Virus record (IMG/VR): IMGVR_UViG_3300021512_000009
Coordinates: 1 to 26,503 of that record
Source: a virus
Length of the DNA stretch: 26,503 bases
Direction: 5' to 3' (one strand)
The position numbers were made by a program, and so were the translations under genes. Position 1 is the first letter of the stretch; every line of letters begins with the position of its first letter. The notes under the pieces are model-generated. The model made no database searches. It was given only the letters and a program-made list of their open reading frames with translations, and was not told the DNA's origin. Below, piece by piece: positions 383 to 21,987 of this stretch.

Positions 383-1870
383 ATGAGCAGTAAGGGAGTG
401 GGATTAGATATAGGAACTAATATGTTAGTTTCCGCTATTATGGATGAGAATGGTAATCCTGTATATAAACGTCAACGTGACGCTTTTCTTAGAATTACTC
501 CTAAGTCAAAAGTAAATCAAAAGAGTATACGTTTGGCATTGGAAAACAGAAAAGCAAATTTTATTATAGATGAGAATGGGGATTTCATTGTTGTTGGTGA
601 GGACGCACTGTTAATGGCTAATGAGCGTAGTGTAGACGCTCAACGACCAATGAGTAAAGGTGTTCTTTCACCAAAAGAGAAGGATTCTTTGCCTATGATT
701 AAACTTATTATTAAGAGTTTAATTGGTAAAGGTGAGGGCAGTGATAATTTAGTGTTTTCTATACCAGCGGAACCAGTGGATGGTGCGTTTGATATATTTT
801 TTCACACCGAAATGATGAAGTCATATATGAAAAAAATGGGATTTGACGCGACACCACTTAATGAGGGATTTGCTATAGCTTTCTCAGAATTATTGGATGA
901 TAATCTTACTGGTATGTGTATTAGTTGTTTAGTTCCAGGAACTAAAATTTACACGGATAAGGGTATTGTAAATATTGAAGACGTAGTGGAAGGTGATAAA
1001 GTTTTAACACATAAAGGTAGATTTAAAAATGTGAATGCTGTAATAACAAAACAGTTTAAAGGTATTAGTACTAAAATACAATTACAGGGCTATAAAGATA
1101 GTACTGAATACTATAAATTTGTAGATGATCATGAGATATTAGTTAATAGAAACGGCAATTGGTTGTGGACTGGTTGTGAAAGTTTGAAAGTAGGTGATAT
1201 AGTAGGTGAACCTATAGTTAAACAAGATAGGAGTGGTGGAAAACCCACTATGACTATATGTGAAAGAATAACATCATCAAGGTTGTTTATAAATGGTGAT
1301 TTTTGTTGTACTCGTGTGCAGTCTATAGAATATGAAGACTATGAGGGTGTAGTATATGATTTAAATATTGAAGATGACCATTCTTTTTCTGGGCCATTTT
1401 TAACAATTCATAATTGTGGTGCTGGTATGATAAACACCGCAGTAGTTTATGAAGGTGATCCCATTGTTCAGTTTTCACTATTACGTGGTGGGGATTGGAT
1501 TGATAATGCAGTAGGTAAAGCACTTGATGAAATACCATCTCTTATACAGGTAGAGAAAGAAGATGATAGTTTAGATATAATAAATCCAGAGAGTAAGATT
1601 CATGAAGCTATATCAGTTTATTACAATGTTCTGATTAATTACGCTTTAGATAATATTTTGTACGAATTAGACAAAGCTAAACTACCTACATTTCGTGAGG
1701 AAATACCTATAGTGGTTTCTGGTGGTTTAACCTTGGCTAAGGGTTTTGTAAATAAATTTAAGGCAGGTTTTGCAGATAAAAAATTTCCTTTTGAAGTAAA
1801 GGAAGTGCGAAGAGCAAAGGATCCAATGACAGCTGTAGCTAATGGGTGCTTAATGGCTGCCATATTATGA
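383..1870 (+). CDS. Actin/ParM-like ATPase interrupted by a mini-intein
   Basis: The precursor is 495 aa; removing the 163-aa intein leaves 332 aa, close to the usual size of ParM-type actins. Phosphate-1 is near the N-terminus (GLDIGTN, residues 7-13), phosphate-2 is rebuilt across the splice junction (GMCIS joined to CGAGMINTAVVY), and an adenosine-type motif (IVVSGGL) lies near the C-terminus. Such actins form ATP-driven filaments that segregate plasmids or position phage DNA. Start ATG with GGAGG 8 bases upstream. Odd point: the Asp usual in phosphate-2 (DxGxGT) is absent; Ser precedes CGAG. The family assignment is strong; whether it moves phage DNA, a plasmid form or virions is unknown. 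The next gene, 23 bases downstream, is a candidate partner. Confidence 0.85.
   Translation: MSSKGVGLDIGTNMLVSAIMDENGNPVYKRQRDAFLRITPKSKVNQKSIRLALENRKANFIIDENGDFIVVGEDALLMANERSVDAQRPMSKGVLSPKEKDSLPMIKLIIKSLIGKGEGSDNLVFSIPAEPVDGAFDIFFHTEMMKSYMKKMGFDATPLNEGFAIAFSELLDDNLTGMCISCLVPGTKIYTDKGIVNIEDVVEGDKVLTHKGRFKNVNAVITKQFKGISTKIQLQGYKDSTEYYKFVDDHEILVNRNGNWLWTGCESLKVGDIVGEPIVKQDRSGGKPTMTICERITSSRLFINGDFCCTRVQSIEYEDYEGVVYDLNIEDDHSFSGPFLTIHNCGAGMINTAVVYEGDPIVQFSLLRGGDWIDNAVGKALDEIPSLIQVEKEDDSLDIINPESKIHEAISVYYNVLINYALDNILYELDKAKLPTFREEIPIVVSGGLTLAKGFVNKFKAGFADKKFPFEVKEVRRAKDPMTAVANGCLMAAIL
926..1414 (+). mobile_element. Mini-intein (163 aa) in the actin-like protein
   Basis: The insert starts with Cys (block A, CLVPGTKIYTDKG) and ends with His-Asn (FLTIHN) before a Cys +1 residue, the complete set of splicing residues. 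Block B is VDDHEILV, with the conserved His (intein residue 69) but Val in place of the usual Thr. No LAGLIDADG or HNH motif is seen, so this is a minimal splicing element without an endonuclease. Extein joining restores a continuous actin phosphate-2 loop; the unspliced protein should be unable to bind or hydrolyse ATP normally. Boundaries follow from the +1 Cys and the frame and are well supported. Confidence 0.9.
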
Positions 1871-1893: not shown

Positions 1894-2850
1894 ATGAGTA
1901 AAGATTTAGTTAAAATAGATGAGATGAGAGATATTACTGTACAAACAGATGACTTAATTGATAAGTCAAACAAATTTATACAAATATTTTCTAGAGCGGC
2001 TGATCCAGATGCACATAGCTTGGTTGAATTTAAGGTGTTTGACAATAATAAACTTGCTAAGTTAGCATCGAATATGCCAGAGATTAATAGAGCGACGAAT
2101 GTATTTGGCCGGCAGAACTCACAGACCACTGGTAAATTGATGTCGCTACATATGATTTCACAATCACCATATAGAAGATTGAAGCAGTGTTTGGCAGAGA
2201 TCGAACGAAAGCGACAAGCGCTTAAGGAAAATATTTTTAAGCTTAGAAAAGAAAGAGTGGAATTAGATAAATTAATAGCTAAAAAACAACGTTGGTTTGA
2301 TGATGAAACGGAATTAGATGACATTGATAGAGATTTTGAGCTTCAACTTTTGAATATAGAGATAGAAGAAAAGGTTGCTAATATTGGTGATACTAGTATT
2401 TATATTGAGGGTGCTCTGAAAGAGATTGGTATGTATCAAGATGCTTATAACGAAATTAAAGAGTCGTATAATATTCCTGATGATTGGGATGAGGATGATT
2501 TTGAAAAATGTGAAATAGAGGAACATATTAAGACGTCATTTTTACATGCTATAAGAGATGTTGAAATGACTGGTAGGTTAAATGTGGGCACACATGAATA
2601 TCTTGAACAATATGGTGTCAATCCACATGCTGCCTATGCATTAGTAAAACAATATTTAGCACAAGTAGAAGAGATAACAGCTTCTGGCAATGCACCTAGT
2701 ATACAAGTATTATATGATTTTTTAGATAAGATGTATAATTTATTTAAGAATGAATATAAGCATGCTATGCGGCGTATTGGTCTTAAAAAGTTAATATCTG
2801 ACGATTATTTATATTTAGCGGAGAAAACAGAAGAAAGTAATGAGGAGTAA
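1894..2850 (+). CDS. Unknown helical protein next to the actin gene
   Basis: A 318-aa protein with no recognised enzyme motif. Residues about 100-150 form a strongly charged coiled coil (alternating Lys/Arg and Glu with Leu spacing), followed by acidic helical segments, a Trp-Asp-Glu-Asp acidic patch in the middle, and a Lys/Arg-rich helix before an acidic tail. No signal peptide or membrane segment. Start ATG with GGAGG about 10 bases upstream. It lies 23 bases after the actin-like gene and likely shares its transcript. ParM-type actins usually work with an adaptor encoded just downstream, so it could be a partner, but it is much longer than typical ParR and no ribbon-helix-helix motif was recognised. 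Confidence 0.8.
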   Translation: MSKDLVKIDEMRDITVQTDDLIDKSNKFIQIFSRAADPDAHSLVEFKVFDNNKLAKLASNMPEINRATNVFGRQNSQTTGKLMSLHMISQSPYRRLKQCLAEIERKRQALKENIFKLRKERVELDKLIAKKQRWFDDETELDDIDRDFELQLLNIEIEEKVANIGDTSIYIEGALKEIGMYQDAYNEIKESYNIPDDWDEDDFEKCEIEEHIKTSFLHAIRDVEMTGRLNVGTHEYLEQYGVNPHAAYALVKQYLAQVEEITASGNAPSIQVLYDFLDKMYNLFKNEYKHAMRRIGLKKLISDDYLYLAEKTEESNEE

Positions 2851-2853
2851 TCA

Positions 2854-4392
2854 TTGCCTAATAAGCTTAATTATAATTTGGTCAAGTCGTCATTTGATAA
2901 TGAAGGATATACGTTACTATCAACTGAGTATGTTAATAGTAGGGAGAAGTTGAAATATAAGTGTCCCTCTGGCCATTATCATAGTATCTCATGGTCTAAA
3001 TGGCAGGCTGGCAGACGATGTCCTTATTGTTCTGGTAAAGTTAAAAAAACACTGTCATTTATTAGGAATGAATTCAGTAAAGAGGGGTATGCACTATTAG
3101 AAACGTCGTATGTGAACGCGCATGAGAAATTAAAATGTAAATGCCCCAATGGTCATATTACACATATAAGTTGGCATAATTGGAATCATGGACGACGGTG
3201 TGGTGTTTGTGCTGGTAAAGTAATAGATATTCATATGATTAAAAATGCATTCGAGTCTGAAGGTTATGTACTTTTATCAACGGAATATCTTGGTGCACAT
3301 TCATTTTTACATTATATTTGTCCTAGTGGTCATAAACATAAAATTAGATGGCATAATTGGTTATCGGGCAGGAGATGCCCTACTTGTAGCGCGTTAGTTC
3401 GTAGAATACCATTTGATAGTATAGTTAAATCTTTGAACGCTGAGGGGTATGAATTATTGAATATTGAATATGTGAATAGTGGATATCGCACTAACACATA
3501 TGTATATTATAAATGTCCATATGGGCATGTAGGTAAGATACGGTATGATCAATGGTCCAGTGGACATAGGTGTCGTACTTGCTTTATGAATGGTAGATCA
3601 TCGCAAGAGAACGCTTTGTATGAATATATTTGCACGCTTGACTCTAATGTACTAAGACATGACAGAAAATTAATATTTCCGTATGAATTGGATATAGTTT
3701 GTCCAGATAAAAAAATTGCTATAGAATATTGCGGTTTATATTGGCATTCAGAATTGGCTGGTAAAGATAAAGACTATCATGTGAATAAGTTGAATTTGTG
3801 TAGAAAATCTGGATATCGTTTATTAACTATTTTTGAAGATGAATGGGTAAATAAAAGAGATATAGTATGTAACATGCTTCGCGTTGTTATGCATAATAAC
3901 AGTAATAAATTGTATGCTAGAGAATGTGTAATAAAACCTATATCTGTTAAAGATGCTGTTTATTTTTGTAATAGGAACCATTTGGAGGGATATAAGACAT
4001 CTATGATACATTTGGGTGCATTTTACGCTGATAATCTTATGGCAGTAATGCTGTTTTCTAAGGCTAGTGGTACAGGTGATACATATGAATTAAATAGATT
4101 TTGTATCATTAAAGATCATGTAATTGTAGGATTGGCTTCTAGGATGTTTAATTATTTTAAGCATAATTATGTATGGTCAAACGTTTTATCATATGATGAT
4201 CGTAGGTGGTATGATGGTAGTTTATATGATAAAATAGGATTTAGGTTAATAGGTGTTACACAACCGAATTGTTGGTATTTTAAGAGTGGTGAGTTAGAAA
4301 GGTTTCGTGTTTTTGACTTGGTAAATAGATCACAATCATATAATTATATATGGGATTGTGGTAATTTGAAATATAAAACATCAATTTTGTAA
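2854..4392 (+). CDS. HEN-A: zinc-ribbon/Vsr-like (EDxHD) homing endonuclease
   Basis: A 512-aa free-standing nuclease starting at TTG, with GAGGAG 7 bases upstream inside the end of the previous gene. Residues 8-243 hold four repeats of about 52 aa, each with a C-P-x-G-H ... R-C-x-x-C metal site (C37/H41/C56/C59; C97/H101/C116/C119; C156/H160/C175/C178; C221/H225/C240/C243). Residues about 250-345 form a Vsr-like nuclease with E252, D280, E291 and H298 (motif IEYCGLYWHSE), as in the I-Bth0305I-type EDxHD family. Residues about 355-512 resemble a GNAT/Mom-type acyltransferase fold (H376, YELNRF 411-416, YDDR 447-450). It probably cuts DNA to drive its own spread; the zinc ribbons likely bind DNA. 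The tail domain's role is unknown. HEN-B is a sister with the same nuclease and tail. Confidence 0.85.
   Translation: MPNKLNYNLVKSSFDNEGYTLLSTEYVNSREKLKYKCPSGHYHSISWSKWQAGRRCPYCSGKVKKTLSFIRNEFSKEGYALLETSYVNAHEKLKCKCPNGHITHISWHNWNHGRRCGVCAGKVIDIHMIKNAFESEGYVLLSTEYLGAHSFLHYICPSGHKHKIRWHNWLSGRRCPTCSALVRRIPFDSIVKSLNAEGYELLNIEYVNSGYRTNTYVYYKCPYGHVGKIRYDQWSSGHRCRTCFMNGRSSQENALYEYICTLDSNVLRHDRKLIFPYELDIVCPDKKIAIEYCGLYWHSELAGKDKDYHVNKLNLCRKSGYRLLTIFEDEWVNKRDIVCNMLRVVMHNNSNKLYARECVIKPISVKDAVYFCNRNHLEGYKTSMIHLGAFYADNLMAVMLFSKASGTGDTYELNRFCIIKDHVIVGLASRMFNYFKHNYVWSNVLSYDDRRWYDGSLYDKIGFRLIGVTQPNCWYFKSGELERFRVFDLVNRSQSYNYIWDCGNLKYKTSIL
2875..3582 (+). repeat. Four tandem zinc-ribbon coding repeats in HEN-A
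   Basis: Four consecutive modules of 52-56 codons share the pattern EGY-x-LL-x-x-x-Y, then C-x3-H, 14 residues, and C-x2-C. The spacing between His and the second Cys pair is exactly 14 residues in all four. DNA copies have diverged, so the repeat is old at nucleotide level but tightly conserved at metal ligands. The array is likely a modular DNA-recognition arm. Confidence 0.85.
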
Positions 4393-9550: not shown

Positions 9551-12500
9551 TTGTCGTTTGTTGAAATAGGAGATAATTTAGAGGAAATAATGGACCGGGG
9601 TGGTTCTATGGTGGAATTTTATAGAACTGACCCGGTATTGGCAGCGTATGATCTATTGCGAGTAGATTTGGCTCCTATTCAACGTATTATACTTAGGGAT
9701 ATGTGGTTTAAAAATTATTGTATTACAGTGGCTGGTCGTGGTTGTGGGAAAAGTGTATCTGTAAATAGTTTATCTTATGTTAACAATAAAGGATTATGTT
9801 ATCTTTATGAAGAATTTCCGGCAATACCATATTTTCTTAATAGCGGAGAAACTGTAGAAATAGACGATTGTAGATCCATTCACACTGCAAGTGGTTCTTG
9901 CTCTACTAAAAAAGTGTCACTTGAGAAAGATATAAATGGTTTAAAATTAAAAACAAGTTGTGGTTTTACTCATTGTGGGAGTGAGCACCATCCGCTCTTA
10001 ACTATAGATGAGGAAGGTAATTTTATATATAAGCCAGTTAAAGATTTTAAACCCGGTGATAGAATATGCATTCAACGTGGACAACAAATTTTTGGAGAAG
10101 GTCATATTGATGATGAAGGTGCTTATTTAATAGGTTTGTTTTTGGGAAATAAGGAAGTACCAAAAATAATCAGACATTCAGATAAGCAAACACAAATTAG
10201 TTTTCTACAGGGTATTTTTGATACTAATGGTGAGTTTGAAAGCGATAGTTGTATGATATCTTCTTGTTTTATGTCTAAGAAATTGGCTATTGAAATTCAA
10301 ATGATGTTACTAAATTTTGGTATAGTTTCTAGAGTAATAGAAAAAGGGACTGAGTCTGGTTGTGGTGTATCTTTTATAGTTGAATTTGGCTCTAGAAATT
10401 TAATTACATTTGTGAACGAGATAAATTTTAGGATTGAGCATAAACGTGAATCTCTAAATCAATACCTATTTCACAAAAAGTTAGATACTGATATCGATAC
10501 AATACCCTATGTAAAGAATATATGTTATGAAATATTTGAGCAATGTAAACTAGGAAATGCTCCTATTTATGATGGTCTAGAGTTATCCATGTTAAATTCT
10601 AAAGAATATACTTATAAGGAATTGATAAATTTTTTAAGTAATTTTTTAGATTTGGTATCCGGAGGATATAAATTTAGTAATAAATCTTTGTTGAATTTGG
10701 AAAAGTTATATAATATAGTTATTACTAATTACTTTTTTGATGTAGTAGAGTCCATATCCGATTGGTCCGGTGATTGTTATGATTTTGAAATGGATATGGA
10801 AGGAGAGCCAAATTATTTTGCAAATGGTTTTATAAATCATAATACTTTTTTATTGGGTATTAATGCAGTTTTGCATGCTCTTCTTTATCCTGGGTATCGT
10901 GTTGGTTTAATAGCTCCATCTTTTAGACAATCTATAGTTATATCAAATAATTACACAACATTTTGGTCTGACACTGGGTTATATTCTAATACCAATGATT
11001 TTTATAATTCTGTTATAGAGGGTAAAACACATGTACAATCATTTAAATACCAAAATAAAATATTAAGTAAATGGAAAAATGATGACAGAGAATGTATTGG
11101 CATAAAAACAACTAAAGGATTTGAATTGGAAGGAACTGCTGACCACGCTATAATGAGATTGAATATGGATGATGCAAATATTGAGTTTTGCGATTTAAGA
11201 GACCTTAATATTGATGATTATGTATTATTGAAAGCAGGTTTTAATTATTTTGGAAATAACGATGTGTTACCTGAATTTAATTTTGAACATGATTGGCGTA
11301 CAAAAAACTGTGGTATACCTACAGAACTTACTCAGGAGTTGTCTTATCTATTTGGTTTGATTGTTGGTGCTGGTTGTGTATCTGTTGATAAAACTGGTAG
11401 AAAAAATAGAGTGATATTCACTAGTGGAGATGAGGAATTAATAGATATATTTAAGAAGTTGATGTTAAAATATTTTGATATAGAGCCTACTGAAGAAAGT
11501 AATAAAGACAGAGTCCAGCAAATTATTTATTATTGTAAAAAATTAGTTCATTTTTTATTAGCATGTGGTTTTACGAAGACAACTGCGTTGGATAAAAAAA
11601 TACCTGATGTAGTAAAGAAATCATCAAAAGAATGTTTTATTTCATTTGTTAGGGGTTTGATGGACACTGGGGGTAGTTGTTACGTGCAAACTCATAAAAG
11701 AGGTACACACTGTGAGGTTAAATTATCTACATCCTCATTGTGTTTGGCAAAAGAATTACAAGCATTTTTATTAAATATAGGTATAATATCATTGTTATCT
11801 GTTGGTAGCAAGGCCGGTAAGAAGAAATTATTAAACAGGAATAAATACTCTGTTTGCAGTATAGGCTATAGTGTTAGGATAATAGGAAGACGTAATTTAC
11901 AAAAGGCGGCTTATGAAGGATTGTTTGATATTTATAGAAAAAAAGATAAACTAAATAATTATGTAAACAGACACTTTAATCGTGAAGAATCTGTTGGATC
12001 TTATTTAGGGCTGCCTCAGAAAATAGTTAATGAGAATATTAATAAATTTAAACAGTATGTGGATGACGAATTATTTTTTGTACAGATAAAAGAGATAGAT
12101 CATTTTTTTGCTTCCACTATGGACATAGAAGTAGAAAATGAGCATTGTTATTGGGCTGGTGGTTTTATAAACCATAATTCCAAAATGATATTTTCAGAGG
12201 TTGAAAAGTTGTACCAGAAGTCGCCTATTTTGAAAGAAGCGACTGAAAAAAAACCTACTCGTGGTGCTGATACGTGTTTTTTAAAATTTAATGGTACTGA
12301 AAATTCTAATGGTAGTTATATAGAGGCATTACCTATTGGTGTTGATGGAGCTAAAATCAGAGGATCACGTTTTTATTTGATAGAAATAGACGAATTAGCT
12401 CAAATGCCATCGGATATTATAGATATGGTTATTAGACCTATGGCGGCCGTTCATTTAGAACCAATGCAAAAGGTGAGGGAAATAGAGCGGATAGAGAAAT

Positions 12501-13600
12501 TAATAGCAGAAGGTCTGGCTACAGAGGAAGATTTAGAAACAGAAGCTGCAAATAAAATGATAATGACTTCTTCTGGGTATTTCAAATTTAACCATATGTG
12601 GCATAGAATGAAATCTTATTGGAAAGCAATGGCTGAAGAAGGTGAGTCTACTAAATATGCAGTTCATCAAGTACCATATAGATTAATGCCAAAGGGGTTT
12701 TTAGACATTAATAATATAAATGAAGCTAAACGTACCATGTCAAATATAGAATTTATGATGGAGTATGAGGCTGCAATGGTTTCTGATAGTGAGGGATTTT
12801 TTAAGGCTTCATTACTTGAATCTTGTACAAGGAATAGTGGCTTTACTGTAAAAACTCGTGGTGATGCTGGTAAAGAATATGTGCTTGGTATTGATCCAAA
12901 TCAGGGGGGATCAGCACTTTTTGGTTTGGTGGTTATAGAGTTGGGGCCACCAAATAAAATTGTGTATGTGCGAGGATTGAAAAGGCAAGCTACACAAGAG
13001 ATGGCGAAGGCTATTCAGAGACTATTGAGTAGTTTTAATATTGTACGTATTTATATGGATGCTCAGGGTGGTGGTAATGCAATTAAAGATTTATTGGCTG
13101 AAGGATATAATAATAGTACACCTATTTTAGATATGGATGATGATCTTACTAAATATAAACAAGGTCGTCGTATTTTGAAAATGATAAATTTTTCACCGGC
13201 TTGGATATCAGATGCTAATTTTTGTACTTTGTCCTTATTAGAAAACAACAGACTTAGGTTTCCTGATATTCCTCGATCGTCTGTTGAGATAGAAGAAAAA
13301 TTATATGATGAAATACGTTTATTGAAATCACAAATGTTGAATATAGTAGTGACTGAAACTGCCAGGGGTGTTCGTCATTTTGATACACCAAAAAAGGGTC
13401 AAAATAAAGACTTATATTCTGCCTTGATTTTGGCTGCATATGGGGTTAGAGAGATAATGCGTGATTCTGAAATTGTAGAACCAACTTTGGAAAGTGCAGG
13501 ATTAATACGACCGCATCGAAAAGGTGCCTCTTTTGTTAAACAGAAAACTGGTGTGGCTAATGAATATATGAAGGCAGCCGTATTGCAGCGTAAACTTTAA
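9551..13600 (+). CDS. terL: Terminase large subunit with two inteins
   Basis: The 1349-aa precursor gives a 569-aa terminase after removal of two inteins. The spliced protein has Walker A (AGRGCGK joined to TFLLG), the IAPSFRQ/SKMIF segment, Walker B (YLIEIDELAQMP), and a RuvC/RNase H nuclease with acidic positions in LGIDPNQGG, IYMDAQGGG and DLYSALILAAYG. It packages DNA into the prohead using ATP and cuts it. The start is TTG 9551 with GGAG upstream. Exteins are encoded at 9551-9751, 10844-10930 (29 aa only) and 12179-13600. The portal gene follows after a small membrane protein gene. Confidence 0.92.
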   Translation: MSFVEIGDNLEEIMDRGGSMVEFYRTDPVLAAYDLLRVDLAPIQRIILRDMWFKNYCITVAGRGCGKSVSVNSLSYVNNKGLCYLYEEFPAIPYFLNSGETVEIDDCRSIHTASGSCSTKKVSLEKDINGLKLKTSCGFTHCGSEHHPLLTIDEEGNFIYKPVKDFKPGDRICIQRGQQIFGEGHIDDEGAYLIGLFLGNKEVPKIIRHSDKQTQISFLQGIFDTNGEFESDSCMISSCFMSKKLAIEIQMMLLNFGIVSRVIEKGTESGCGVSFIVEFGSRNLITFVNEINFRIEHKRESLNQYLFHKKLDTDIDTIPYVKNICYEIFEQCKLGNAPIYDGLELSMLNSKEYTYKELINFLSNFLDLVSGGYKFSNKSLLNLEKLYNIVITNYFFDVVESISDWSGDCYDFEMDMEGEPNYFANGFINHNTFLLGINAVLHALLYPGYRVGLIAPSFRQSIVISNNYTTFWSDTGLYSNTNDFYNSVIEGKTHVQSFKYQNKILSKWKNDDRECIGIKTTKGFELEGTADHAIMRLNMDDANIEFCDLRDLNIDDYVLLKAGFNYFGNNDVLPEFNFEHDWRTKNCGIPTELTQELSYLFGLIVGAGCVSVDKTGRKNRVIFTSGDEELIDIFKKLMLKYFDIEPTEESNKDRVQQIIYYCKKLVHFLLACGFTKTTALDKKIPDVVKKSSKECFISFVRGLMDTGGSCYVQTHKRGTHCEVKLSTSSLCLAKELQAFLLNIGIISLLSVGSKAGKKKLLNRNKYSVCSIGYSVRIIGRRNLQKAAYEGLFDIYRKKDKLNNYVNRHFNREESVGSYLGLPQKIVNENINKFKQYVDDELFFVQIKEIDHFFASTMDIEVENEHCYWAGGFINHNSKMIFSEVEKLYQKSPILKEATEKKPTRGADTCFLKFNGTENSNGSYIEALPIGVDGAKIRGSRFYLIEIDELAQMPSDIIDMVIRPMAAVHLEPMQKVREIERIEKLIAEGLATEEDLETEAANKMIMTSSGYFKFNHMWHRMKSYWKAMAEEGESTKYAVHQVPYRLMPKGFLDINNINEAKRTMSNIEFMMEYEAAMVSDSEGFFKASLLESCTRNSGFTVKTRGDAGKEYVLGIDPNQGGSALFGLVVIELGPPNKIVYVRGLKRQATQEMAKAIQRLLSSFNIVRIYMDAQGGGNAIKDLLAEGYNNSTPILDMDDDLTKYKQGRRILKMINFSPAWISDANFCTLSLLENNRLRFPDIPRSSVEIEEKLYDEIRLLKSQMLNIVVTETARGVRHFDTPKKGQNKDLYSALILAAYGVREIMRDSEIVEPTLESAGLIRPHRKGASFVKQKTGVANEYMKAAVLQRKL
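9752..10843 (+). mobile_element. TerL intein 1 (364 aa), in the Walker A loop
   Basis: The insert starts with Ser (SVSVNSLSYVNNKG) and ends GFINHN before a Thr +1. Splicing rejoins GRGCGK to TFLLG, the Walker A lysine and threonine. Block B reads SEHHPLL (Ser in place of the usual Thr; His at 80). A LAGLIDADG endonuclease trace remains: LIGLFLGN (residues 126-133) and FLQGIFDTNG (151-160), but both catalytic-position acids are Asn and the motifs are only about 25 residues apart, where an intact domain has roughly 90 or more. The endonuclease is therefore degraded while the splicing residues are intact. Confidence 0.9.
10931..12178 (+). mobile_element. TerL intein 2 (416 aa), LAGLIDADG type
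   Basis: The insert starts with Ser (SIVISNNYTTFW) after IAPSFRQ and ends GFINHN before Ser +1 (SKMIF). Block B is TADH (residues 69-72). A full-length LAGLIDADG domain is present, with motif 1 LFGLIVGAG (140-148) and motif 2 RGLMDTGG (241-248) about 98 residues apart. The aspartates expected in GDG and in DxDG are Ala and Gly, so cutting activity is probably lost. Splicing residues (Ser1, block B His, terminal His-Asn, Ser+1) are all present. Confidence 0.9.
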
Positions 13601-20333: not shown

Positions 20334-20348
20334 TAGTGATTGCAATTG

Positions 20349-20383
20349 GTTATATCTACCACTATAAACGTGGTAGGTATAAC
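20349..20383 (+). other. 14-bp RNA hairpin between capsid and HEN-B genes
   Basis: GTTATATCTACCAC, a 7-base loop, then GTGGTAGGTATAAC: 13 Watson-Crick pairs and one U-G pair. It begins 15 bases after the capsid stop. No run of T follows directly (A-rich instead), so it is not a classic terminator; it could protect the capsid mRNA 3' end or weaken read-through. Confidence 0.65.
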
Positions 20384-20447
20384 AAAAACAGGGACTTTTT
20401 GGATTTACTCAAACTGTAGTATTTTTGGTTTAGAGCAGGGGCTAATT

Positions 20448-21926
20448 ATGCCAAAGTACAAGAATAAAGAATGTCATATTTGTGGTAAAACATTTAATCC
20501 AATAAGTCCTAATCAAAAATATTGTCTTGGATGTAGGGATGAAGGTTGTAAAATACGTAGCCGAGAGCGCGATAGAAATAGGTATAGAAAGAAATATAAT
20601 TATAAAAAATATGTTAGATATTGTATGATTTGTGGTAAAAGATTTACTACATATTATAGTAAAAAATTATATTGTGGATCTAGTGAATGCGAAAAGGAGC
20701 GTATAAGAATTAAAAATGCTAAGTCTCAAAGAGCTAGAGATAAATTAGCGGAAAAGGCCAGAAGTAAAGAGTATTACAATAGGAATAAAGATATATGTAA
20801 ATTAAAAAAGGCTATGAAATATAGAGAATTACACCAATGTACTAAGAATTATGTGCCTGGTAGGGTTTATAAATATACTATAGAAGAAGTTAGTGCATAT
20901 GTATCTGAATTTGGTTATACGTTACTATCGACTGAATATAAAAATAGTAATTCTAAAATAAAGTTATTATGCCCTAAAGGACATGAGTGGGAAACTACAT
21001 TTCATAACTTTAAGGGTAGTGATAATAAAAAAGGTAATAGATGTTTATATTGTTATTTGGAAAATAACTATACTTCTGTACCTGAGCAGAAGTTAATTGA
21101 TTATTTTATTGATAATTATCCTAATATAAAAATTATTCATAATGACCGTAAACAAATATTTCCATTTGAAATTGATTTATATTTTCCTGATAATAAATTA
21201 GGAGTAGAAGTATGTGGGTTATATTGGCATAGTGAACTTGCAGGTGGTAAATCCAAAAACTATCATTATGATAAAATGATGAAATGCTATAAAAATGGCA
21301 TTAGACTAATTACTGTGTTTGAGGATGAGATAAAAGATAAATTTAATATCGTGATTTCTAGAATATTACATGCACTTAATATTATAGACGTTAAAGTGCA
21401 CGCTAGAGAATGTGAAGTAAAAGAAATAGATAATATGGCTGCAAACGAATTTTTTGAACAGCATCATATCCATGGTGGATCGCAGTTTAAGAAATCTTGG
21501 GGGTTATTTTATAGAGGAAAATTATTGCAGGCGTGTAGTGTTGGTAATTTAGTAGGTGAATATTCCTATGGTACTACGATTATAGAATTAAATCGATTTT
21601 GTTCAGAAACTAATGTAGTTGTTGTTGGTGGTTTTTTTAAGCTATTTGAACATGTAATTAATTATTGTATATGTAATAATTATGAATTTATTAGATTGTA
21701 TTGTGATATGAGATATGATGATATATTTGACACATTATATGAAAAAATCGGATTTACGTTAGAAGCTTTTATTAAGTACATGCCGCATTATATTAAGAAT
21801 GGGTTTAGATATTATAATTGTTCGTTAGTAAAAATGGATAATATAGAATCTGAATTTGGCTATAAACATGGGTATGATTGTATTTGGGATTGTGGACATA
21901 GAATTTATGTATATAAAGTTGTGTAG
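20448..21926 (+). CDS. HEN-B: zinc-binding/Vsr-like (EDxHD) homing endonuclease
   Basis: A 492-aa sister of HEN-A. N-terminal zinc clusters come first (C9/C12/C26/C29 and C59/C62/C76/C81), then a basic region, one zinc-ribbon of the HEN-A type (C175, H179, C199, C202) and the Vsr-like nuclease (residues about 212-300; D243, E254, H261, motif EVCGLYWHSELAGG). A GNAT/Mom-like C-terminal domain follows (residues about 319-492; IIELNRF and LYEKIGF). ATG 20448 is preferred over an in-frame TTG at 20340 because the 36 extra residues are unlike the zinc cluster start and overlap the hairpin. It lies directly behind the capsid gene, a common landing place for free-standing HENs. Confidence 0.83.
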   Translation: MPKYKNKECHICGKTFNPISPNQKYCLGCRDEGCKIRSRERDRNRYRKKYNYKKYVRYCMICGKRFTTYYSKKLYCGSSECEKERIRIKNAKSQRARDKLAEKARSKEYYNRNKDICKLKKAMKYRELHQCTKNYVPGRVYKYTIEEVSAYVSEFGYTLLSTEYKNSNSKIKLLCPKGHEWETTFHNFKGSDNKKGNRCLYCYLENNYTSVPEQKLIDYFIDNYPNIKIIHNDRKQIFPFEIDLYFPDNKLGVEVCGLYWHSELAGGKSKNYHYDKMMKCYKNGIRLITVFEDEIKDKFNIVISRILHALNIIDVKVHARECEVKEIDNMAANEFFEQHHIHGGSQFKKSWGLFYRGKLLQACSVGNLVGEYSYGTTIIELNRFCSETNVVVVGGFFKLFEHVINYCICNNYEFIRLYCDMRYDDIFDTLYEKIGFTLEAFIKYMPHYIKNGFRYYNCSLVKMDNIESEFGYKHGYDCIWDCGHRIYVYKVV

Positions 21927-21987
21927 TATGTAAAGATTTTTTGGACAAGGAATAATTTATTTAAGAATTGATAAGGAGGAAAAGGTT

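What the first reader, a model, noticed from the sequence alone, without database searches (positions are those of the whole stretch)
2854..4392. HEN-A fuses zinc ribbons, a Vsr-like nuclease and a GNAT/Mom-like domain
Four ribbons with identical C-x3-H-x14-C-x2-C spacing look like a modular DNA reader. The C-terminal domain (H376, YELNRF, YDDR, then LYDKIGF) follows the pattern of GNAT folds, and its ELxRF-type core recalls Mu Mom, which modifies adenine. A nuclease joined to a modifying-type domain could be a self-protecting or modification-sensing homing enzyme. Only the nuclease part is confidently assigned.
Basis: partly seen in the sequence, partly recalled or inferred. Interest (0 to 1): 0.65.

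Follow-up and report, generated by a model that had tools for sequence, protein, structure and literature searches.

The report
Hef homing endonuclease with Mom-like domain
This is a mobile phage gene for a DNA-cutting enzyme of a known kind (a "Hef" homing endonuclease), with variable zinc-finger modules at the front, a cutting domain in the middle, and a tail domain shaped like Mom, the phage Mu enzyme that chemically modifies adenine; what that tail does is the one open question.

Summary
ORF 2854-4392 (512 aa) has four tandem C-x3-H-x14-C-x2-C modules, a Vsr/EDxHD-type nuclease (247-343) and a C-terminal domain that is a GNAT fold. The best solved match of the C-terminal domain is phage Mu Mom (8bv8, Foldseek E 1.8e-8; profile comparison 98.9%).

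The protein is a full-length member of a large phage family, phrog_559/Hef, found in hundreds of phages. It behaves as a free-standing homing gene. A syntenic relative (78% identical DNA) lacks it. A more distant relative has the two flanking genes 12 bp apart. A third carries an unrelated HNH endonuclease at the same spot.

The front modules diverge freely (about 20% identity, dN/dS about 0.5). The nuclease and Mom-like domains are equally constant (46% and 45%; dN/dS 0.19 and 0.14). Pocket residues H376, E412, R415, D449 and Y458, shared with Mom, are 95-100% conserved in 133 relatives. However, Mom's catalytic loop (N-x-E-S124) and Y59 are not kept, so it is Mom-related, not a demonstrated Mom.

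Mom-nuclease fusions in jumbo phages were published in 2021 and read as restriction-modification. My evidence favours homing, with the GNAT domain as a constant second module whose activity is untested.

The parts
2842..2847 (+). GAGGAG ribosome-binding-like site inside the end of upstream gene X; suggests translational coupling of HEN-A to gene X
   Evidence: Sequence: gaggag, then gene X stop TAA 2848-2850, then ATC, then TTG 2854.
2854..4392 (+). HEN-A, 512-aa Hef-type homing endonuclease with Mom-like GNAT domain
   Evidence: ORF; phrog_559 over residues 4-508, E 3e-97.
2872..3039 (+). zinc module 1 (residues 7-62)
   Evidence: CxxxH at residue 37; repeat alignment
3052..3222 (+). zinc module 2 (residues 67-123)
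   Evidence: CxxxH at residue 97
3229..3399 (+). zinc module 3 (residues 126-182); best CapR-domain stretch
   Evidence: PF21817 best stretch 128-179
3412..3588 (+). zinc module 4 (residues 187-245), most diverged
   Evidence: CxxxH at residue 221
3592..3882 (+). EDxHD/Vsr-like nuclease domain (residues 247-343); D280, E291, H298, K312
   Evidence: Family HMM E 8e-43; 3r3p; D, E and K 100%, H 99% in about 131 relatives
3889..4389 (+). Mom-like GNAT domain plus Hef-specific C-terminal hairpin (residues 346-512); H376, E412, R415, G426, D449, Y458, F463
   Evidence: hhalign to Mom 98.9%; AlphaFold pLDDT 89.7, top PDB match 8bv8; conservation
1894..2850 (+). gene X, upstream neighbour, conserved in relatives, unknown function
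   Evidence: 37-84% identical homologs L132-L138
4443..5120 (+). gene Y, downstream neighbour (phrog_1574, unknown function); relative L138 suggests the start is ATG 4452
20340..21926 (+). HEN-B, second, divergent Hef copy directly 3' of the major head protein gene (likely ATG start about 20448); different zinc modules, same nuclease and Mom-like domains
   Evidence: absent from two syntenic relatives with breakpoints at 20335 and 21938-21940

Best explanation
HEN-A is a free-standing (not intron- or intein-borne) homing endonuclease of the Hef family. Its four CapR-like zinc modules form the changeable target reader. The EDxHD/Vsr-like domain cuts a related genome that lacks the gene at or near the gene X/gene Y junction, and repair copies the gene across. 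Every Hef-type relative examined also keeps a Mom-related GNAT domain next to the nuclease. It is as constant as the nuclease, so it is part of the core enzyme and not the target-specificity module. Most likely it is a second module that engages DNA and still has an acyl-CoA-type catalytic pocket, able to mark adenines at or near the target. SHOWN by computation: domain content, fold, homology to Mom, insertion polymorphism, selection pattern. INFERRED from family knowledge: DNA cutting, homing. INFERRED and weak (about 45%): that the GNAT pocket is catalytically active.
For: Whole-length match to phrog_559 'HNH endonuclease' and to phrog_3339 'homing endonuclease'. Matches in 592 phage records, many annotated Hef-like/homing endonuclease. 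Up to 12 copies in one 135-kb Campylobacter phage, at scattered sites. Presence/absence: the syntenic 78%-identical L138 lacks HEN-A; L134 has genes X and Y 12 bp apart; L132 carries an HNH homing endonuclease in the same gap. HEN-B is likewise absent from two relatives with sharp breakpoints. A broken Hef copy lies in L002. Relatives sit where T4-type homing genes sit: between nrdA and nrdB in Escherichia phage FL23, the site of mobE, and U5 hef cuts nrdB (PMC2988022); between genes 23 and 24 in RPN226 and Berthold. GNAT/Mom: hhalign 98.9%, E 3e-17; reciprocal HMM hits; AlphaFold C-term pLDDT about 90-97 with Mom 8bv8 as top PDB match. Conservation of H376 99%, E412 96%, R415 98.5%, D449 95%, Y458 100%. 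Domain identities 20/46/45% and dN/dS 0.50/0.19/0.14 for N-term/nuclease/C-term.
Against: No activity can be tested here. Mom's N-x-E-S/T loop is remodelled to V-x-G-G-A-S-K, although 8bv8 is described as 'inactive mutant S124A'. S429, the nearest serine, is only 79% conserved and its alignment to S124 is uncertain. Mom Y59 is I/L in Hef. T4-type Hefs have N in place of D449. The GNAT Q/R of motif A is absent. The retrieval was similarity-biased, so '133 of 133 have both domains' is partly by construction. dN/dS pairs are not independent and many are near saturation. The target site of HEN-A is unknown.
Confidence: 0.8

Rival explanations
1. The GNAT-fold domain has lost catalysis and serves only to bind or position DNA (a structural or DNA-contact domain) in an otherwise ordinary homing endonuclease.
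For: Mom's catalytic loop N-x-E-S124 and Y59 are not kept. D449 is N in T4-type Hefs, which include the nrdA-nrdB copy. Homing itself needs no acyl-CoA in any known family (general knowledge). Residue 430 is basic in all (K 90%, R 10%), which could contact DNA.
Against: Polar residues at the positions of Mom's pocket, not only surface basic ones, are 95-100% conserved at about 45% pairwise identity. The GNAT general-acid motif Y-x-K-x-G-F is intact with Y458 100%. The domain is under the strongest constraint of the three.
Confidence: 0.4
2. Single-chain restriction-modification: the Mom-like domain marks phage DNA genome-wide and the nuclease destroys unmarked host or rival DNA (the reading of Iyer et al. 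2021, PMC7824862).
For: Published proposal for jumbo-phage Mom-REase fusions, with PA5oct named as having five (the same five-copy phage appears).
Against: Copies are numerous, patchy, inserted between genes, have diverged readers and decayed copies, and are almost confined to phages: one hit, in a 4-kb contig of an Elusimicrobiota MAG, among 84,980 prokaryote genomes with the patterns used. One genome-wide marker would not need 12 paralogs with different readers.
Confidence: 0.1
3. Known Mom family enzyme (methylcarbamoylase) fused to a nuclease, with Mom chemistry unchanged.
For: Mom is the closest solved structure and closest Pfam family; 22 of 35 relatives hit PF25680, best E 1e-9.
Against: HEN-A scores 16-20 bits against the Pfam cut-off of 27.1. 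Invariant Mom residues Y59, N121, E123 and N163 and the S/T at 124 are not kept.
Confidence: 0.07

Closest known systems
Hef / phrog_559 phage homing endonucleases (Campylobacter NCTC12673 Hef58, AR9 g188, FL23 nrdA-nrdB gene)
   Same: Full-length homology, same order of reader - EDxHD nuclease - Mom-like GNAT domain, free-standing between core genes.
   Different: Only 45-52% identical to the nearest members. Four near-identical CapR-like modules with exact spacing are rare. Sits at a gene X/Y junction not seen in named phages.
Jumbo-phage Mom-REase fusions (Iyer et al. 2021, PMC7824862)
   Same: Almost certainly the same proteins: the text names PA5oct with five copies, as found here.
   Different: They were read as restriction-modification; the insertion pattern here favours homing.
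Phage Mu Mom (PDB 8bv8)
   Same: GNAT fold; H58, E108, R111, D149, Y159 and F164 equivalents.
   Different: Mom's N-x-E-S124 loop, Y59 and N163 are absent; a Hef-specific C-terminal D-C-G hairpin replaces Mom's R-Y-I-Y-x-L end.
I-Bth0305I (PDB 3r3p), EDxHD homing endonuclease
   Same: Nuclease domain.
   Different: Intron-borne; to my knowledge no Mom-like domain, and other DNA-binding modules.
T5orf172 homing endonucleases with CapR/DUF723 repeats (PMC10448857)
   Same: Beads-on-a-string zinc-module reader, near core genes.
   Different: Nuclease is GIY-YIG type; no GNAT domain.

Membership tests
Hef / phrog_559 homing endonucleases | Full-length homology (reader-nuclease-C-terminal domain) | tested here: met
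   phrog_559 residues 4-508, E 3e-97; tblastn full-length hits
Hef / phrog_559 homing endonucleases | Gene is an insertion absent from related genomes | tested here: met
   L138 lacks it, L134 empty, L132 has an HNH gene there
Hef / phrog_559 homing endonucleases | Site-specific cutting and biased inheritance | not testable with these tools
   Needs enzyme and co-infection assays
EDxHD (Vsr-like) nucleases | Nuclease core with conserved D280, H298 and E/D residues | tested here: met
   3r3p E 4e-4; D, E and K 100%, H 99%
CapR homology zinc domain | Profile match above curated cut-off | tested here: met
   PF21817 32.1 bits against 24.2
CapR homology zinc domain | Sequence-specific DNA binding | not testable with these tools
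   Needs a binding assay
GNAT superfamily | GNAT beta-alpha topology | tested here: met
   AlphaFold elements 359-477; Foldseek to Mom and many GNATs
GNAT superfamily | Motif A pyrophosphate loop Q/R-x-x-G-x-G/A | tested here: inconclusive
   G426 (99%) and A428 (79%) fit; Q/R not present
GNAT superfamily | Motif B Y-x-x-x-G-F with general-acid Tyr | tested here: met
   LYxKxGF, Y458 100%, F463 99%
Mom family (PF25680) | Fold and shared core residues H58, E108, R111, D149, Y159 | tested here: met
   hhalign 98.9%; conservation
Mom family (PF25680) | Score above Pfam cut-off (27.1 bits) | tested here: not met
   16.0 bits full length, 20.0-20.3 bits C-term alone
Mom family (PF25680) | Invariant N-x-E-S/T loop (S124 needed for activity per 8bv8 title) and Y59 | tested here: not met
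   Loop is V-x-G-G-A-S-K, Y59 is I/L
Mom family (PF25680) | Adenine modification of DNA | not testable with these tools
   Needs LC-MS of DNA
Restriction-modification system | Modification protects against the linked nuclease | not testable with these tools
   Distribution argues against but does not exclude it

The most novel reading that the evidence does not exclude
Hef homing endonucleases carry a working acyl-CoA-dependent base-modifying domain on the same chain as the nuclease. The enzyme can therefore mark its own (already invaded) copy against cutting, giving a homing gene with built-in, sequence-targeted self-immunity, and a site-directed adenine modifier whose target is set by swappable zinc modules.
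Probability: 0.25. Interest if true: 0.75.

Novelty: new member of a known kind. Interest (0 to 1): 0.4.

Why it matters
Hef genes are common homing genes in large phages, yet a third of each protein, the Mom-like GNAT domain, has no tested role that I know of. It is more constrained than the reader modules and at least as constrained as the nuclease. If it is catalytic, these are natural zinc-module-guided base modifiers and the first homing genes known to me to carry their own marking activity. If not, it is a striking case of an enzyme fold reused with its pocket kept. Either answer also corrects the published count of 'momylating enzymes' in jumbo phages.

Tried and rejected
Intron or intein location of HEN-A: rejected. 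No Rfam intron in the window, and the ORF sits between complete genes X and Y. Sequence search of the C-terminal profile against PDB sequences does not find Mom; the link needs profile-profile or fold comparison. NCBIfam gave no useful hit. PADLOC hits only a homing-endonuclease profile. Naive MAFFT of Mom with two Hefs misaligned the loops and was replaced by hhalign and a ten-Mom alignment. The key papers on Mom residues, Hef and I-Bth0305I are not held, so Mom residue roles rest on the 8bv8 title and on conservation. No near-identical DNA exists in the named-phage collection.

Full report
OBSERVATION. The ORF at 2854-4392 (+) encodes 512 aa from a TTG that follows the stop of the upstream gene by three bases, with GAGGAG at 2842-2847. 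C-x3-H-x14-C-x2-C occurs exactly four times (residues 37, 97, 156, 221). Shuffles of the protein give 0.002 on average and at most one, and the four repeats are 20-30 residues identical over about 57, z = 11-19. They match the CapR homology domain above its cut-off. CapR-type zinc modules are described as DNA-binding repeats of phage homing endonucleases (PMC10448857). The nuclease matches 3r3p, a mobile-intron protein, which I identify from memory as I-Bth0305I.

FAMILY. The whole protein matches phrog_559 (E 3e-97, residues 4-508) and phrog_3339 'homing endonuclease'. tblastn finds 592 named phage records, many annotated Hef or homing endonuclease, with up to 12 places per genome (16 matching stretches in NCTC12673). 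The NCTC12673 record itself notes similarity to 'Hef [Bacteriophage U5] at C-terminus'. In Escherichia phage FL23 a member lies between the ribonucleotide reductase alpha and beta genes. That is the mobE site of T4, and PMC2988022 states that U5 hef cleaves nrdB.

MOBILITY. A syntenic relative (L138; 78-80% DNA identity across the window) lacks HEN-A and holds an unrelated repeat-protein ORF there. The more distant L134 has genes X and Y 12 bp apart. L132 has a 247-aa zinc/HNH homing endonuclease in the same gap. L002 has the closest HEN-A homolog (52% identical) in the same volactin-cspA neighbourhood but without genes X and Y, plus a broken second Hef. HEN-B (20340-21926) follows the major head gene. 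The syntenic relatives G004 and G005 lack it, with alignment breaks at 20335 and 21938-21940. The L001 homolog also follows what looks like a head gene, and RPN226 and Berthold carry theirs between genes 23 and 24, where T4 has segD (PMC2988022). So the gene behaves as a free-standing homing gene.

C-TERMINAL DOMAIN. Pfam Mom hits HEN-A below cut-off (16 bits full length, 20 bits alone), but phrog_1384 'Mom-like' hits at 7e-7. An HMM of ten Moms hits 37 of 133 Hefs (best 4e-12), and a Hef C-terminal HMM hits five true Moms. hhalign gives 98.9%, E 3e-17, 24% identity over 127 columns. AlphaFold with 40 sequences gives mean pLDDT 88, about 97 over most of the C-terminal domain; the domain alone gives 89.7, pTM 0.81. 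Foldseek's top PDB match in both cases is 8bv8, Mu Mom (E 3e-7; 1.8e-8 with TM 0.66/0.56), then many GNATs.

POCKET. In 133 distinct relatives the nuclease residues D280, E291 and K312 are 100% and H298 99%. The Mom-equivalent pocket residues are H376 99%, E412 96%, R415 98.5%, D449 95% and Y458 100%. Y458 sits in the GNAT motif Y-x-K-x-G-F. Against this, Mom's invariant N121-x-E123-S/T124 loop is replaced by V-x-G-G-A-S-K; 8bv8 is the 'inactive mutant S124A', and S429 is 79% with uncertain register. Mom Y59 is I/L. The T4-type Hefs have N for D449. Hence: Mom-related GNAT, fold shown, catalysis open.

ROLES OF THE PARTS. In 295 random pairs of relatives the N-terminal region is 20% identical (background level), the nuclease 46% and the C-terminal part 45%. 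In close pairs median dN/dS is 0.50, 0.19 and 0.14 (pairs overlap and many are near saturation, so only the order matters). The zinc or other N-terminal modules are the swappable reader; the GNAT domain is a constant part of the engine. Nuclease-only ORFs related to this nuclease do exist, so the GNAT domain is a trait of the Hef group and not of the nuclease as such. Retrieval by similarity means domain co-occurrence is partly built in.

MECHANISM. Shown: anatomy, homology, insertion polymorphism, constraint. Established for the families: EDxHD enzymes and Hef cut DNA, and free-standing genes home by repair. Inferred: HEN-A cuts at or near the X/Y junction; the GNAT pocket engages a base and perhaps an acyl-CoA (about 45% for transfer activity, about 40% for a pure DNA-contact role, remainder other).

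PRIOR ART. Iyer et al. [quoted passage not shown] GenBank annotates an Acinetobacter Hef as 'putative nuclease/acetyltransferase protein'. The find is therefore a new member of a known kind. What this study adds is the synteny evidence for homing, the side-by-side constraint of reader, nuclease and GNAT domains, and the residue-level comparison with Mom.

Noticed in passing
window 20340-21926: Second, divergent Hef (HEN-B) directly 3' of the major head protein gene, with a different zinc module set; absent from two syntenic relatives.
   Followed up: yes
window 383-1870 (intein about 919-1416): Actin-like (Volactin-family) protein interrupted by a mini-intein of about 166 aa; relative L138 lacks the intein.
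   Followed up: partly
window 9551-13600: Terminase large subunit with two inteins (about residues 68-431 and 465-874) only 33 extein residues apart, with LAGLIDADG domains; L138's contig has neither.
   Followed up: partly
L232 4490-5649: In the relative behind L132 the major head gene is split by a group I intron (RF00028, 44.5 bits, below gathering score) carrying a LAGLIDADG-like ORF, while the window carries HEN-B just after the same gene: head genes as a shared homing target.
   Followed up: partly
L132 7859-8599: HNH homing endonuclease occupies the gene X/Y gap that HEN-A occupies in the window.
   Followed up: yes
L138 8956-10044; L133, L137: GVFGGG-repeat (propeller-like) proteins appear next to gene X in relatives; function unknown.
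   Followed up: no
L002 5837-6178 and 6476-6868: A broken second Hef copy, as expected from homing-gene decay.
   Followed up: no
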